A stretch of 64,000 bases of DNA from Streptomyces sp. cg36 (lineage in GTDB: Bacteria; Actinomycetota; Actinomycetes; Streptomycetales; Streptomycetaceae): NCBI RefSeq assembly GCF_041080675.1, contig NZ_CP163520.1, forward strand, positions 1,178,001 to 1,242,000, in the 5' to 3' direction. The position numbers were made by a program, and so were the translations under genes. This document shows, in pieces, positions 43,366 through 50,677 of this stretch. Position 1 is the stretch's first letter; every line of letters starts with the position of its first letter. The notes under the pieces were generated by a model. It was not told where the DNA came from. It ran no database searches and saw only the letters and a program-made list of their open reading frames with translations.

Positions 43366-44814
<1,449 letters not shown>

Positions 44815-44905: not shown

Positions 44906-44934
44906 AAGTTAAGTACCTTTACTTTGGGCGTCAA
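44906..44934 (-). promoter_or_regulatory. Permease promoter with embedded ROK operator
   Basis: On the minus strand TTGACG (44934-44929), a 17-base spacer and TAACTT (44911-44906) form a good housekeeping promoter. The operator GTTAAG-TAC-CTTTACT (44908-44923, plus strand) covers the -10 and most of the spacer. The same GTTAAG-N3-CTTTACT element occurs at 46202-46217. Confidence 0.72.
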
Positions 44935-44979
44935 GAGGTCGCCGGGAAACCGTCGGGAGCGATGCGTGAGAATGATGCG

Positions 44980-46164
44980 ATGACCAGCAGCGACGAGGGT
45001 GAACAGCCCTGGAACCCCCAGCGTCAGCGAAACAGCAACGAGCGGCTGCTGCTCGACCGGCTGCGCAGCGGCGGTCCGGCGTCGCGGGCCCAACTGGCCC
45101 GGGAGAGCGGTCTGTCCAAGCCGACGGTCTCCAGCGCGCTGGCCGCGCTCGCCGCCACCGGCCTGGTCCGCGAGGCGGGTACGCACACCCCCGAGCGGGG
45201 TCGCTCCGCCGTCCTCTACGCCCCGGACCCGACCGCGGGTTACGCGCTGGGCATCGACATCGGCCGGGCCTGGCTGCGGGTGGCCCTCGCCGATCTGGAC
45301 GGCACGGTGGTGGCCCGCTCCGAGGTCCGCAACCAGGCCCGCACCTCGAACACCATGGCCGACCTCGTGGTCACCACCGCCCACCAGCTGGTCGCCGGGT
45401 CCGGGGTGCCGGCCGCCAAGGTCGTCCAGGCGGTCGTCGGCACTCCCGGGGTGTACGACGAGGAGAAGCGCCGGGTGCGCTACGCCCAGCACCTGCCGGG
45501 CTGGGGCCGCCCCGGCCTCTTCGACCGGATGCGCGACGGGCTCGGCCTGCCGCTGGCGGTGCACAACGACGCCAACCTCGCGGCGCTCGGCGAGTACACC
45601 TTCGGGGTCGGCGCGGGCAGCCGCCTCTTCGTCTACGTGATGATCGGCACCGGTCTCGGCATGGGCGTGGTGAGCGAGGGCCGGCTCTTCACCGGCGCGC
45701 ACGGCGGCGCGGGCGAGATCGGCTTCCTGCCGTGGCCCGGACGGCAGAAGCCGGACACCCTGGAGGACGCGGTCTCGGGGGACGCGGTGGTGGCGGCGGC
45801 CCGGGAGCACGGCATGGCCGGACCGCTCACCGCCAAGGACGTCTTCACCGCCGCCCGGGCCGGGGACCCGGCCGCCGTCAAGGCGGTCGAACTGGAGGGC
45901 GAGCGGCTCGCGCACACCGTGGCGGCGGTGGCGGCCGTGCTCGACCCGGACCTCGTGGTGCTCGGCGGGGGCGTCGGCCACAGCGCGGACCTGCTGCTGC
46001 GGACCGTACGGGAGACGCTGCGCACGCTGACGCCGCTGCGGCCGAAGGTGGCGCCCAGCGGGCTCGGCGAGGACGCGGTGCTGCTGGGCGCGGTGGCGAC
46101 GGCGCTGGACACGGCGCGGGACCTGACCTTCGAGCGACGGACGCACACCCCCGGCGGTCGTTGA
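44980..46164 (+). CDS. ROK-family transcriptional repressor (CsnR-like)
   Basis: A 394-residue ROK regulator. The N-terminal winged HTH (about 18-75) includes ASRAQLARESGLSKPTVSSALAALAATGLV. The sugar-kinase-like domain has LGIDIGRAWLRVALADLDG, VHNDANLAALGEYTFG and GTGLGMGVV. The Cys-rich zinc motif that normally follows GEIGH is missing (GEIGFLPWPGRQKPD). ROK protein CsnR controls chitosanase genes in S. lividans, and a glucosaminidase gene follows here. ATG 44980 is taken; GAGAAT six bases before it would give a leaderless mRNA, while ATG 44962 has a ribosome site too close. Its stop overlaps the -35 of the next gene. Confidence 0.85.
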   Translation: MTSSDEGEQPWNPQRQRNSNERLLLDRLRSGGPASRAQLARESGLSKPTVSSALAALAATGLVREAGTHTPERGRSAVLYAPDPTAGYALGIDIGRAWLRVALADLDGTVVARSEVRNQARTSNTMADLVVTTAHQLVAGSGVPAAKVVQAVVGTPGVYDEEKRRVRYAQHLPGWGRPGLFDRMRDGLGLPLAVHNDANLAALGEYTFGVGAGSRLFVYVMIGTGLGMGVVSEGRLFTGAHGGAGEIGFLPWPGRQKPDTLEDAVSGDAVVAAAREHGMAGPLTAKDVFTAARAGDPAAVKAVELEGERLAHTVAAVAAVLDPDLVVLGGGVGHSADLLLRTVRETLRTLTPLRPKVAPSGLGEDAVLLGAVATALDTARDLTFERRTHTPGGR

Positions 46165-46189
46165 CATGCTTCGCTCACATCTCTACCGT
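46161..46189 (+). promoter_or_regulatory. Promoter of the exo-glucosaminidase gene
   Basis: TTGACA (46161-46166), 17 bases, TACCGT (46184-46189). The -35 overlaps the stop codon of the ROK gene. The predicted transcript start is near 46196, leaving a leader of about 80 bases that begins with the ROK-type operator. Confidence 0.7.
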
Positions 46190-46201
46190 CGGAGTCGAAT
46201 T

Positions 46202-46217
46202 AGTAAAGATTCTTAAC
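46202..46217 (-). promoter_or_regulatory. Second ROK operator copy, in the glucosaminidase leader
   Basis: Read on the minus strand this is GTTAAG-AAT-CTTTACT, identical to the permease-promoter operator in all 13 defined positions. It starts about five bases after the predicted transcription start, a roadblock position. Confidence 0.7.
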
Positions 46218-46277: not shown

Positions 46278-48968
46278 GTGTTCCACCGCCGTCCCGCCCT
46301 CCGAATCCGCCGCCGGACCGCCGCCGCCGTCGCGCTCGGCCTCGCGCTGGCCCTGACGCAAGGCACCTCCTCGGCAACTCCCGCCGCCCGTGCGCCGACC
46401 GCCCCCTCGGCCACCGCGCTCACCGGGTACGCGATCCAGTCCACCGCCAAGGTCACCGACCCGCCCTCGGCCGTCTCGCGGCCCGGATATCCCACCCCGG
46501 GGTGGTACCCGGCGGGAGCGCGCTCGACCGTGCTGGCGGCCCTGCTCGCCCACGGCGACCACCCCGACCCCTTCTACTCCACCCAGCAGAAGCGCATTCC
46601 CGCCGCCGACTTCGCCGTGCCCTGGTGGTACCGCTCCGACTTCACCGTCGCCGACACCTCGGCGCGGACCTACCTCGACTTCAGCGGGGTGATCTCGGCG
46701 GCCGACGTGTACGTGGACGGGCAGCAGGTCGCGGACGCCGCCACCGTCTCCGGCGCGTACACCCGGCACGAGCTGGACATCACCTCCCTGGTCCGTCCCG
46801 GCACCAACACGGTCGCCTTCCGGGTCCGGCCCAACGACCCCCGCAAGAACCTCACCATGGGGTGGATCGACTGGCTCCAGCCGCCGCCCGACGAGAACAT
46901 GGGGATCGTCCGCGACGTGGTGGTCCGGCGCGGCGGCCCGGTGGCCCTGCGGGACGCGCACGTGGTGACCGCGCTGGCCGTGCCCTCCCTGGCTAGCGCC
47001 GACCTGACCGTGAAGGCGCGGGCCCGCAACGACACGGCGGGCCCGGTGACGGCCACCGTCTCCGGCACCATCGGCGCGGTCTCCTTCAGCCAGGACGTGG
47101 CGCTCGCCGCGCACGAGACGAAGACCGTCGCCTTCACCCCCGGCGCCTTCCCCCAACTGCGCCTCTCCGCGCCGCGCGTGTGGTGGCCCGCGGGCATGGG
47201 CGAGCAGGCGCTGTACGACCTCGACCTCACCGCCACGGTCTCCGGCGCCGCCTCGGACACGGCGCACGAGTCGTTCGGCGTCCGCGACGTCAAGGCCCCC
47301 CTCAACGCCGACGGCGCCCGCCAGTACTCCGTGAACGGGCGCCCGCTGCTGATCAAGGGCGGCGGCTGGTCCCCGGACGAGTTCCTGCGCTGGGACCGCG
47401 GCTACGCGGAGGACCGGCTGCGGTACGCGCTCGACCTCGGCCTGAACACCATCCGGCTGGAGGGCCACATCGAGCCCGACGAGTTCTTCGACCTGGCCGA
47501 CCGCTACGGCGTGCTGACCATGCCGGGCTGGGAGTGCTGCGACAAGTGGGAGGGGCAGGTCAACGGCGGCGAGCCGGGCGACAAGTGGACCGCCGCCGAC
47601 TACCCGGTCGCGGCGGCGTCGATGGCCGCCGAGGCGGCCCGGCTGCGCGACCACCCCAGTGTGGTCTCGTTCCTGATCGGCAGCGACTTCGCCCCCGACC
47701 GGACCATCGAGAAGACCTATGTGGACGCGCTGCGGGCGGCCGACTGGCCGACCCCGGTGGTGGCCGCCGCGTCGGACAACTCCGCGCCCCTGAACGGCCG
47801 TTCGGGCATGAAGATGTCCGGCCCCTACGACTGGGTGCCGCCGAACTACTGGTACAACAAGCAGGAGGGCGGGGCCACCGGCTTCAACTCGGAGACCAGC
47901 GCCGGACCCGACGTCCCCACCCTGGACACCCTGCGCCGGATGCTCTCCCCCGCCGAGCTGGACACCCTCTGGAAGGACCCGTCGGCCAAGCAGTACCACC
48001 GCTCCCCCTCGGCCGCCTTCGCCACCCTCAAGCTGTACGACGACGCGCTGGCCGGCCGCTACGGCCCCCCGAGCGGCCTCGACGACTATGTGCGCAAGGC
48101 GCAGCTCGCCCAGTACGAGAACGTGCGCGCCCAGTTCGAGGCGTACGGCCGCAACGCCAAGGACCCCGCCAAGCCCGCCACCGGGGTCGTCTACTGGATG
48201 TTCAACAGCGGCTGGACCTCGCTGCACTGGCAGCTGACGGACCGTTACCTCGACCAGGGCGGCGCCTACTTCGGTGCCAAGAAGGCCAATGAGCCGCTCC
48301 ACGTCCAGTACGGGTACGACAACCGCGCGGTCTCCGTGGTCAACAACCGCCACGCACCCGCCACCGGACTCACCGCCCGGGTGACGCTCTTCCACACCGA
48401 CGGCACCCAGAAGTACGACCGCACGGTGAGCGGGGTGCGGGTGGGCGGCGACGGCGCGAGCACCACCGCGCTGACCCTGCCGGCGGACGTCACCGGCCTC
48501 TCTCCCACGTATCTGGCCCGACTGCTGCTCACCGACGCCTCCGGCAAGGAGGTCAGCCGCAATGTGTACTGGCTCTCCACCAGGCCCGACGTCCTCGACT
48601 ACGAGCACACCGACTGGTACCACACCCCCACCACGGGCTACGCCGATCTGACGGGGCTCGGCTCGATGGCCCGCGCGGAGGTGCGGGCGACCGCCTCCAC
48701 CACCACGGACGCGGGCACCTCCACCACCACCGTGACGCTCACCCGCACCGGCGCGGGCCGGGCCCCGGCGCTGCTCACCGACGCCCATCTGGTGGACGGG
48801 CGGGGCACCCCGGTGCTGCCGGCGCGCTGGTCCGACAATCAGGTCACCCTGTGGCCGGGCGAGTCGGCGACCCTCACGGCCACCTACCGCACGGCCGACC
48901 TGCACGGCTCCGCGCCCCGAGTGCGCGTCTCCGGCTGGAACACCCCGACCGCCACCGTCCCGGGGTGA
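46278..48968 (+). CDS. csxA: Secreted exo-beta-D-glucosaminidase (GH2)
   Basis: An 896-residue secreted glycoside hydrolase family 2 enzyme. It is very similar, from memory, to Amycolatopsis CsxA, which releases glucosamine from the non-reducing end of chitosan oligomers. A long signal peptide (RRPALRIRRRTAAAVALGLALALTQG) precedes the sugar-binding, Ig-like and TIM-barrel domains. The acid/base region reads FLIGSDFAPDR, with Asp in the Ser-Asp form typical of this subfamily instead of Asn-Glu, and the nucleophile Glu is in FNSETSAG. MPGWECCDKWEGQVNG and QYHRSPS are also conserved. The C-terminal CBM35 of CsxA is absent. GTG 46278 follows GGGAG. Confidence 0.92.
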   Translation: MFHRRPALRIRRRTAAAVALGLALALTQGTSSATPAARAPTAPSATALTGYAIQSTAKVTDPPSAVSRPGYPTPGWYPAGARSTVLAALLAHGDHPDPFYSTQQKRIPAADFAVPWWYRSDFTVADTSARTYLDFSGVISAADVYVDGQQVADAATVSGAYTRHELDITSLVRPGTNTVAFRVRPNDPRKNLTMGWIDWLQPPPDENMGIVRDVVVRRGGPVALRDAHVVTALAVPSLASADLTVKARARNDTAGPVTATVSGTIGAVSFSQDVALAAHETKTVAFTPGAFPQLRLSAPRVWWPAGMGEQALYDLDLTATVSGAASDTAHESFGVRDVKAPLNADGARQYSVNGRPLLIKGGGWSPDEFLRWDRGYAEDRLRYALDLGLNTIRLEGHIEPDEFFDLADRYGVLTMPGWECCDKWEGQVNGGEPGDKWTAADYPVAAASMAAEAARLRDHPSVVSFLIGSDFAPDRTIEKTYVDALRAADWPTPVVAAASDNSAPLNGRSGMKMSGPYDWVPPNYWYNKQEGGATGFNSETSAGPDVPTLDTLRRMLSPAELDTLWKDPSAKQYHRSPSAAFATLKLYDDALAGRYGPPSGLDDYVRKAQLAQYENVRAQFEAYGRNAKDPAKPATGVVYWMFNSGWTSLHWQLTDRYLDQGGAYFGAKKANEPLHVQYGYDNRAVSVVNNRHAPATGLTARVTLFHTDGTQKYDRTVSGVRVGGDGASTTALTLPADVTGLSPTYLARLLLTDASGKEVSRNVYWLSTRPDVLDYEHTDWYHTPTTGYADLTGLGSMARAEVRATASTTTDAGTSTTTVTLTRTGAGRAPALLTDAHLVDGRGTPVLPARWSDNQVTLWPGESATLTATYRTADLHGSAPRVRVSGWNTPTATVPG

Positions 48969-49636: not shown

Positions 49637-50677
49637 TCAGGTCCTCGCGAGCACCGGCCACAGCGCCGGGTCCTCGAAGTCCAGCGCCCACAGGGAAGTG
49701 CCCCGCACGCCGTACCGGGCGAGCAGGGGCAGGCACGCCTCGACGCCCCGGGCGTCCTGGTACCAGACCTCGCGGGCGGTGCCGTTCGCGTCCCGGTAGG
49801 TGAAGTGGGGCGTCTTGGAGACCGGGTCCAGGGCGTAGGGCGCGCCCTGGGCCTTGCGCAGCGCCTCCGCCTCGCGCCAGGTGACGTGCCGGGCCCGGGC
49901 GCCGCCGCCCGCGGGCCAGTCCCAGCCGTAGCCGGGCAGCGCCAGCTCGATGCGGTCGGCCGGGATCAGCGCGGTGGCCCGGCGCAGGATCTCCTCGTAC
50001 CAGTCGACCCCGGCCAGCGGGCCCGGGTCGCCGCCCGACCAGTGCCGGTCGTACGCCATGATCCGCACCCGGTCGGCGGCCCGGCCGAGCGCCGCGTAGT
50101 CCCAGATCCGGCCGGTGGCGGCGGTCTGCGGCGAGACGGTGCTGACGCACTTCTTGGCGAGGGCGTGCAGGCGGGCGCAGAGCCCGGTGACGAAGGCCGC
50201 GTAGTCCGCCCGTACCGCCTGGTAGGCGGCGTCGCCGGTCGGGGCGATCGACTCGTAGTCGATGTCGAGGCCGTCGTAGGCATGGCCGCGGACGATGCCC
50301 ACGAGGGTGTCGACGTGGGCGGCGCGGCGGGCCGGGTCGGCGAGGATCGCGGCGAGGACGCCGGGCTCCATCGTCTCCATGACGGTCGGCACCACCGCGA
50401 TCCCGGCCGCGTGCAGCCCGTCGACGACGCGCCGGTCGCCCGCGCCCGGGTGGCCGTCCACCCGCTCGGCGGCGACCGCCCGGTACCAGAACGGGCTGAC
50501 GGTGTGCAGCTGGGCGGCGTGGCGCAGGGCGTCCTGGTAGGCGCCCTCCTGGTCCCAGTAGGGCAGCCAGGCCGAGACGGTCCCGGGCGGGGCGGGCTCT
50601 TCGGCGAAGGCGGCGGGCGGGCTCGTGAGCAGGGCGAGCAGGGCGGCGCAGAGGGCCGCCAGAACGCGGACGATCAT
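49637..50677 (-). CDS. Secreted GH18-like glycoside hydrolase
   Basis: A 346-residue protein with signal peptide (IVRVLAALCAALLALLTSPPAAFA) and a single GH18 TIM barrel. The catalytic D-x-x-D-x-D-x-E motif is intact as YDGLDIDYES with Glu142. SAWLPYWDQEGAYQDALRHAAQLHTVSPFWY, MAYDRHW and LWALDFEDP fit the branch related to spore-cortex or peptidoglycan glucosaminidases (YaaH/SleL-like) rather than true chitinases. The probable substrate is a GlcNAc-containing wall polymer or chitin oligomer (inference). ATG 50677 begins the signal peptide directly. Confidence 0.82.
   Translation of the reverse strand: MIVRVLAALCAALLALLTSPPAAFAEEPAPPGTVSAWLPYWDQEGAYQDALRHAAQLHTVSPFWYRAVAAERVDGHPGAGDRRVVDGLHAAGIAVVPTVMETMEPGVLAAILADPARRAAHVDTLVGIVRGHAYDGLDIDYESIAPTGDAAYQAVRADYAAFVTGLCARLHALAKKCVSTVSPQTAATGRIWDYAALGRAADRVRIMAYDRHWSGGDPGPLAGVDWYEEILRRATALIPADRIELALPGYGWDWPAGGGARARHVTWREAEALRKAQGAPYALDPVSKTPHFTYRDANGTAREVWYQDARGVEACLPLLARYGVRGTSLWALDFEDPALWPVLART

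What the first reader, a model, noticed from the sequence alone, without database searches (positions are those of the whole stretch)
44906..46217. Shared operator links permease, ROK repressor and exo-glucosaminidase
GTTAAG-N3-CTTTACT occurs twice, matching in all 13 defined positions. One copy covers the -10 of the permease promoter, the other lies just after the start of the glucosaminidase transcript. The ROK gene sits between them. This defines a small chitosan-response regulon, and implies that the APC permease carries something related.
Basis: partly seen in the sequence, partly recalled or inferred. Interest (0 to 1): 0.7.

Follow-up and report, generated by a model that had tools for sequence, protein, structure and literature searches.

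The report
Paired operators of glucosaminidase-permease repressor
A soil bacterium (Streptomyces) appears to use one dedicated repressor protein, acting at two matching DNA sites, to switch on a chitosan-trimming enzyme and a transporter together, and comparison with related genomes hints that this amino-acid-type transporter may actually carry the sugar glucosamine.

Summary
The two copies are real and look functional. They are the palindrome GTWARG-N3-CYTWAC: copy 1 (44907-44923) between the divergent permease and ROK genes, copy 2 (46203-46217) between ROK and the GH2 exo-beta-D-glucosaminidase. In 80 named loci plus the window the pattern occurs 126 times in 882 kb; 125 fall in these two gaps and the last belongs there by position. 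Copy 1 always starts 12 bp after the permease TTGAC (78 of 78); copy 2 follows a recognisable GH2 promoter in 60 of 61. In the own genome only these two match the 17-mer with at most one mismatch. The genome also carries a separate CsnR regulon, so this ROK is a CsnR paralogue (36% identical) with its own operator. In most relatives copy 2 also resembles a CsnR box; in the eight loci nearest the window that resemblance has decayed while the palindrome is kept. In 5 of 6 distant permease loci examined a ROK-type sugar kinase lies directly downstream, and in 4 of 11 permease loci with no ROK nearby a CsnR-type box stands in front (the other 7 have neither motif). This suggests, without proof, that an APC-family "amino acid" permease imports glucosamine. 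Binder, inducer and substrate are inferred.

The parts
43366..44814 (-). APC-family permease gene (GTG start), predicted importer of glucosamine or a related amine sugar
   Evidence: PF13520 173.7 bits; nearest solved structures 9h76/6f2g, E about 2e-24
44929..44934 (-). -35 element TTGACG of the permease promoter
   Evidence: TTGAC exactly 12 bp before the 15-mer site in 78 of 78 loci
44907..44923 (.). Operator 1, AGTTAAGTACCTTTACT, between divergent permease and ROK genes
   Evidence: of 78 loci with permease, 65 exact to GTWARGNNNCYTWAC, 11 with 1 and 2 with 2 mismatches
44906..44911 (-). -10 element TAACTT of the permease promoter, overlapped by operator 1
   Evidence: 77 of 78 loci with 17-bp spacing
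44980..46164 (+). ROK-family repressor gene (alternative in-frame ATG at 44962), CsnR paralogue
   Evidence: PF00480 165.4 bits plus winged helix-turn-helix matches; 36% identical to this genome's CsnR
46161..46166 (+). -35 element TTGACA of the glucosaminidase promoter (overlaps the end of the ROK gene)
   Evidence: TTGAC found upstream of copy 2 in 60 of 61 loci
46184..46189 (+). -10 element TACCGT of the glucosaminidase promoter
   Evidence: TANNNT at spacing 17 or 18 in 60 of 61 loci
46203..46217 (.). Operator 2, GTAAAGATTCTTAAC, just downstream of the predicted glucosaminidase transcript start
   Evidence: 60 of 61 loci exact, 1 with 1 mismatch
46278..48968 (+). GH2 exo-beta-D-glucosaminidase gene, CsxA-like, with a signal-peptide-like N terminus (by eye)
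   Evidence: 1213 bits to 2vzs over residues 7-895, GSDFAPD and NSETSAG blocks identical; PF18368 115.7 bits

Best explanation
The ROK protein is a dedicated repressor that binds the palindrome AGTWARG-N3-CYTWACT. Bound at operator 1 it covers the spacer and -10 of the permease promoter and probably also holds down its own divergent gene; bound at operator 2 it blocks the start of the glucosaminidase transcript. A chitosan-derived amine sugar (glucosamine or a short oligomer) most likely binds its ROK domain and releases it, so that the secreted enzyme cuts glucosamine off chitosan ends and the permease takes it up. Shown by sequence: both sites, their rigid promoter placement, their conservation, co-occurrence with this ROK, and distinction from the CsnR box. 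Inferred: that this ROK is the binder, repression rather than activation, the inducer, and the permease substrate.
For: Across 81 loci (80 named, the best 80 of 294 found, plus the window: 61 with permease and GH2, 17 permease only, 1 GH2 only, 2 neither), the pattern occurs 126 times in 882 kb: 65 in the permease-ROK gap, 60 in the ROK-GH2 gap, 1 (L083) filed elsewhere only because the GH2 start was miscalled; base-shuffled DNA gives 0.1, mean of 10. Promoter geometry is fixed. In 20 Streptomyces genomes with a ROK relative 30 of 35 genome-wide matches lie at this locus; the reversed control had 28 in the same genomes, so it is the placement, not the total, that stands out. Of 10 GH2 orthologues seen without an adjacent ROK, 8 lack both this site and a CsnR box. 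Seven permease orthologues (75-82%) with no ROK or GH2 nearby lack both motifs, 7 of 7. The eight GH2-bearing loci with ROK at least 86% identical (window included) have 7 different copy-2 sequences that all keep the palindrome. A CsnR orthologue with its own box coexists with this ROK in 5 of 7 genomes in which boxes were fetched.
Against: No binding or expression data. The pattern was drawn by eye from the loci, some of which are also among the 80, so the count is not fully independent. In G003 and G102, without this ROK, one such site sits between divergent permease and GH2 genes, so CsnR may read it. In G083 the ROK orthologue has neither neighbour nor operator. The permease-ROK pairs of G144 and G237 show no match within 2 mismatches. 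17 of 81 loci have no adjacent GH2, so the enzyme is not an obligate partner. In G083 and G045, which have this ROK or a relative, the CsnR boxes fetched had no csnR gene beside them.
Confidence: 0.75

Rival explanations
1. The sites are ordinary CsnR boxes and CsnR, encoded elsewhere in the genome, controls both genes.
For: Copy 2 differs from the published CsnR consensus AGGAAANTTTCCT at only 1 of 12 positions in 46 of 61 loci. The same string AGTAAAGTTTCCT stands in front of a GH46 chitosanase gene in G083 and of a gene with a near-identical protein start in G012 (not Pfam-tested). G003, without this ROK, has CsnR and keeps a copy-2-like site. A review section states that GH2 genes can carry CsnR boxes (PMC6097792, section 6).
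Against: Copy 1 has 3-5 mismatches in 78 of 78 loci; copy 2 has 2-4 in all eight loci nearest the window, yet all keep GTWARG-N3-CYTWAC. Eight GH2 orthologues elsewhere carry no CsnR box. Perfect CsnR boxes in this genome stand at csnR, at GH46 and at a metallophosphoesterase gene.
Confidence: 0.12
2. Dual control (compatible with the main reading): in most Streptomyces with the locus copy 2 is a composite read by both CsnR and this ROK, so that chitosanase and exo-enzyme are induced together; the loci nearest the window have lost the CsnR half.
For: The common copy-2 sequence GTTAGTAAAGTTTCCTAAC fits both registers; CsnR coexists with this ROK.
Against: Shared bases may only reflect common descent of two ROK operators; no binding data.
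Confidence: 0.4
3. The permease is an ordinary amino acid carrier that merely shares control, for example to balance nitrogen supply while chitosan is used.
For: Its nearest solved relatives are named amino acid transporters; in 7 of 11 loci without a ROK nearby it has neither motif.
Against: In 5 of 6 distant permease loci examined (G045, G112, G144, G237, G502; not G478) a ROK-type kinase gene lies directly downstream, although no NCBIfam kinase model reached its cut-off in the four tested, which include G069. D217 is invariant in 11 of 11 aligned permeases and is Ala in the 5 best alignments to solved chains, which cover three carriers.
Confidence: 0.35
4. Chance repeats in AT-rich promoter DNA.
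For: Copy 1 includes -10 bases that would be conserved anyway; genome-wide totals barely exceed or fall below controls.
Against: AGTAARG in the spacer is not a promoter element yet is conserved; in the loci 126 matches against 0.1 in shuffles.
Confidence: 0.01

Closest known systems
CsnR / csnREFGHK chitosan regulon of Streptomyces lividans and S. coelicolor (SCO2657)
   Same: ROK-family repressor that also controls its own operon, with a chitosan-related hydrolase and a palindromic operator near the transcript start (PMC3048496 passages and section 5; PMC6097792 passages and section 6)
   Different: 36-40% protein identity only; operator GTWARG-N3-CYTWAC instead of AGGAAANTTTCCT; APC permease instead of an ABC transporter; exo-glucosaminidase instead of GH46/GH4; both systems present in one genome
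CsxA exo-beta-D-glucosaminidase (2vzs; Amycolatopsis orientalis, recalled)
   Same: GH2 enzyme aligned from residue 12 to 897 of the chain, with identical GSDFAPD and NSETSAG blocks
   Different: The window enzyme is 896 residues and lacks the C-terminal extension of the 1032-residue chain
RokB of S. coelicolor
   Same: Streptomyces ROK regulator with several genomic sites
   Different: Different motif (TVCVT core) and proposed role in amino acid metabolism (PMC4856308, passages)
APC transporters with solved structures (9h76/6f2g, named BasC from recall; LAT2)
   Same: Fold family; Gly-x-Gly near the N terminus aligned
   Different: GIGPF and an Asp at 217 where the aligned carriers have Ala (helix numbering recalled)

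Membership tests
CsnR regulon | Operator AGGAAANTTTCCT | tested here: not met
   copy 1: 3-5 mismatches in 78 of 78 loci; window copy 2: 3 mismatches. In 46 of 61 loci copy 2 has only 1 mismatch
CsnR regulon | Regulator is the csnR orthologue heading an ABC transporter/GH4 cluster | tested here: not met
   orthologue is elsewhere (L047) with binding protein and two ABC permeases and a frame that looks GH4-like by eye; this ROK is 36% identical to it
CsnR regulon | Induction by chitosan oligomers | not testable with these tools
   needs expression data
ROK-family repressor | N-terminal winged helix-turn-helix plus ROK domain | tested here: met
   PF12802, PF09339, PF13412 and PF00480 over their cut-offs
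ROK-family repressor | Binds a palindrome at its own promoter | tested here: inconclusive
   palindrome present and conserved upstream of the ROK start; binding not tested
GH2 exo-beta-D-glucosaminidase | CsxA-like domains and catalytic blocks | tested here: met
   PF18368, PF22666, PF00703; alignment to 2vzs; role of the catalytic residues recalled
APC amino acid transporter | PF13520 fold family | tested here: met
   173.7 bits, cut-off 27
APC amino acid transporter | Transports amino acids | not testable with these tools
   no NCBIfam model reached its curated cut-off; context suggests an amine sugar

The most novel reading that the evidence does not exclude
An APC-family permease, a fold known for amino acids, is a dedicated glucosamine importer. 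In its ancestral actinomycete module it is co-transcribed with a ROK-type glucosamine kinase and controlled by a divergent ROK repressor that senses the same sugar; Streptomyces later added the exo-glucosaminidase to the operator and, in some lineages without this repressor, placed the permease under CsnR.
Probability: 0.45. Interest if true: 0.68.

Novelty: new variant of a known kind. Interest (0 to 1): 0.52.

Why it matters
In the review section read here (PMC6097792, section 6) chitosan use in Streptomyces is a CsnR matter with ABC uptake of oligomers. This locus points to a second, parallel ROK circuit, probably for the end product glucosamine, with its own operator code and an unexpected transporter type. 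It gives a pair of paralogous repressors with related but distinguishable operators, and natural sequences in which one operator register has decayed while the other is kept, which makes operator divergence after duplication directly testable.

Tried and rejected
Genome-wide counts at 1 or 2 mismatches were not informative: controls were equal or higher; even for the exact pattern the 20 ROK-bearing genomes gave 35 matches against 28 for the reversed control, so the argument rests on placement. The third own-genome match GTAAGGAGTCCTTAC recurs in G003, G007, G022 and G023, which had no match to this ROK, and was set aside as another system's site. A kinase orthologue in the window genome was sought and not found; the best match is 36%. 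In the unnamed family of G502 only 2 of 151 genomes had a close relative of its permease (E <= 1e-120). The Dubeau 2011 CsnR paper is not held, so its list of GH2 genes with CsnR boxes could not be compared. Paper searches for a glucosamine-carrying APC permease or for this ROK and operator: I saw only listings (titles and starts of abstracts), none of which reports them, and opened four papers in part. GH2 protein searches of 150 genomes gave no answer twice and were replaced by a Pfam domain search, of whose matches only 8 unlinked GH2 loci were fetched. No tree and no structure prediction was made; 'nearest the window' means ROK identity.

Full report
OBSERVATION. The 13-position motif occurs twice exactly as reported, at 44908-44923 (+) and 46202-46217 (-). 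Both copies are palindromes of the form GTWAAG-N3-CTTWAC, so orientation is not informative. Copy 1 overlaps the permease promoter TTGACG-17-TAACTT (minus strand) and lies just upstream of the ROK gene; copy 2 lies 13 nt after the -10 of TTGACA-17-TACCGT in front of the GH2 gene. In the own genome the 17-mer AGTWARGNNNCYTWACT with at most one mismatch is found only here; at up to two mismatches the reversed control is higher, 22 against 9, so weaker hits mean nothing.

GENES. The three proteins are an APC permease (PF13520), a ROK regulator with a winged helix-turn-helix (PF00480), and a GH2 exo-beta-D-glucosaminidase (PF18368) that aligns to 2vzs with 1213 bits including identical GSDFAPD and NSETSAG blocks. 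The ROK protein carries DIGRAW where the three permease-linked kinases printed have DxGGTK (meaning of the motif recalled).

CONSERVATION. Among 150 Streptomyces genomes, 21 including the own one have a ROK relative at E <= 1e-60; 16 of the others are 77-83% identical, of which 14 have permease-ROK-GH2 in the same order, 1 (G095) permease only and 1 (G083) neither. Their intergenic regions gave the pattern GTWARGNNNCYTWAC. A named set of 80 loci, the best 80 of 294 relatives found, plus the window has permease and GH2 in 61, permease only in 17, GH2 only in 1, neither in 2 (one of the last two, L106, lies on a 5.9-kb contig). The pattern occurs 126 times in 882 kb: 65 in the permease-ROK gap, 60 in the ROK-GH2 gap, and 1 (L083) filed elsewhere only because its GH2 start was miscalled. 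Base-shuffled DNA gives 0.1, mean of 10 shuffles. Allowing mismatches, copy 1 is present in 78 of 78 loci with permease (65 exact, 11 with one, 2 with two) and copy 2 in 61 of 61 loci with a placed GH2 start (60 exact, 1 with one). Copy 1 starts exactly 12 bp after TTGAC in 78 of 78, with TAACTT at spacing 17 in 77; copy 2 follows a TTGAC-17/18-TANNNT promoter in 60 of 61, beginning 7-14 nt after the -10. The named set overlaps the set from which the pattern was drawn, so this is not a fully independent confirmation.

SPECIFICITY. In 20 genomes with a ROK relative 30 of 35 genome-wide matches lie at this locus; the reversed control gave 28 in those genomes. Nineteen genomes without a match to this ROK have 12 matches (control 6), one of them between permease and GH2 (G003), one in front of a GH46 gene by Pfam (G019) and one in front of a protein resembling it (G012). 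Ten GH2 orthologues were seen without an adjacent ROK: eight (72-78%) show neither this site nor a CsnR box near the gene; the other two, in G003 and G102, lie divergent to the permease and share one site with it. Eleven permease loci have no ROK nearby: seven (75-82%) show neither motif, two (G055, G096) a CsnR box with one mismatch, which also fits this palindrome with one and two mismatches, and two are G003 and G102. G112 (70%) has a one-mismatch site, but its contig begins 426 bp before the permease match and a ROK fragment lies on another contig.

NOT CsnR. The CsnR consensus is AGGAAANTTTCCT (PMC6097792, section 6). This genome has three perfect boxes: one at a ROK gene 36% identical to the window's and followed by a binding protein, two ABC permeases and a GH4-like frame (by eye), one at a GH46 chitosanase, one upstream of a metallophosphoesterase gene. 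Boxes were fetched in six other genomes with this ROK or a relative: G101, G040, G117 and G068 hold a CsnR orthologue (79-80% to the own CsnR, 36-39% to this ROK) beside a canonical box; the boxes fetched in G083 and G045 had no csnR beside them, the G045 listing being cut. G003, without this ROK, has CsnR (77%), as has G013. Copy 1 differs from the CsnR consensus at 3-5 of 12 positions in 78 of 78 loci. Copy 2 differs at only one position in 46 of 61, but at 2-4 in all eight GH2-bearing loci whose ROK is at least 86% identical to the window's (window included), where seven different sequences all still fit the palindrome. The simplest reading is that the palindrome is this ROK's operator and that the CsnR-like register of copy 2 reflects either shared use or ancestry.

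PERMEASE SUBSTRATE. Three lines point to an amine sugar. First, six distant permease loci (56-73% identical) were read: in G045, G112, G144, G237 and G502 a ROK-family kinase-like gene lies directly downstream of the permease, in G478 not; in G045, G144, G237, G502 and G478 a ROK regulator is divergent, and in G069 a ROK regulator (45%) is divergent from such a kinase without permease. No NCBIfam kinase model reached its cut-off for the four kinases tested (G045, G112, G144, G069), so their substrate is open. Second, the CsnR-type boxes just described for G055, G096, G003 and G102. Third, D217 is invariant in 11 of 11 aligned permeases (window included) and is Ala in the five best alignments to solved chains, which cover three carriers. 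Against: the nearest solved proteins are named amino acid carriers, the window genome has no kinase orthologue (best 36%), 7 of 11 loci without a ROK nearby have neither motif, and 17 loci keep permease and ROK without an adjacent GH2.

MECHANISM. The likeliest picture is repression by this ROK at both promoters (and its own), lifted by glucosamine or a short chitosan oligomer. Binding, direction of control, inducer and permease substrate are inferred.

NOVELTY. It works like CsnR but is not CsnR. No report of this ROK, its operator, or an APC glucosamine permease showed in the listings of the searches made, which cover only an open-licence library; the main CsnR paper is not held.

Noticed in passing
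L154:1497-1517 (G000:C1:1513299): GGTTAGGAAAGGTTCCTAACC: two perfect 9-bp arms around 3 bases, one mismatch from the CsnR box, about 40 bp upstream of a 337-residue secreted-looking protein with no Pfam match; a candidate new CsnR target.
   Followed up: partly
L045:5980-5992: A perfect CsnR box about 160 bp upstream of a gene with an F5/8 type C domain and a metallophosphoesterase domain.
   Followed up: partly
G000:C1:1708543 (L043:6544): GGGTAAGGAGTCCTTACCC, a palindrome whose 15-base core recurs in G003, G007, G022 and G023, which had no match to this ROK; perhaps the operator of another regulator.
   Followed up: no
L056:6798-8003: ROK orthologue (83%) with no permease, GH2 or operator beside it; its genome G083 has the pattern once, at a GH46 chitosanase.
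   Followed up: partly
L037:1116-1130: Site fitting both the pattern and, with one mismatch, the CsnR box, before a CBM_4_9/fibronectin-III protein in G008, a genome with no match to this ROK.
   Followed up: no
window 49637-50677: GH18-domain protein gene close to the GH2 gene.
   Followed up: no
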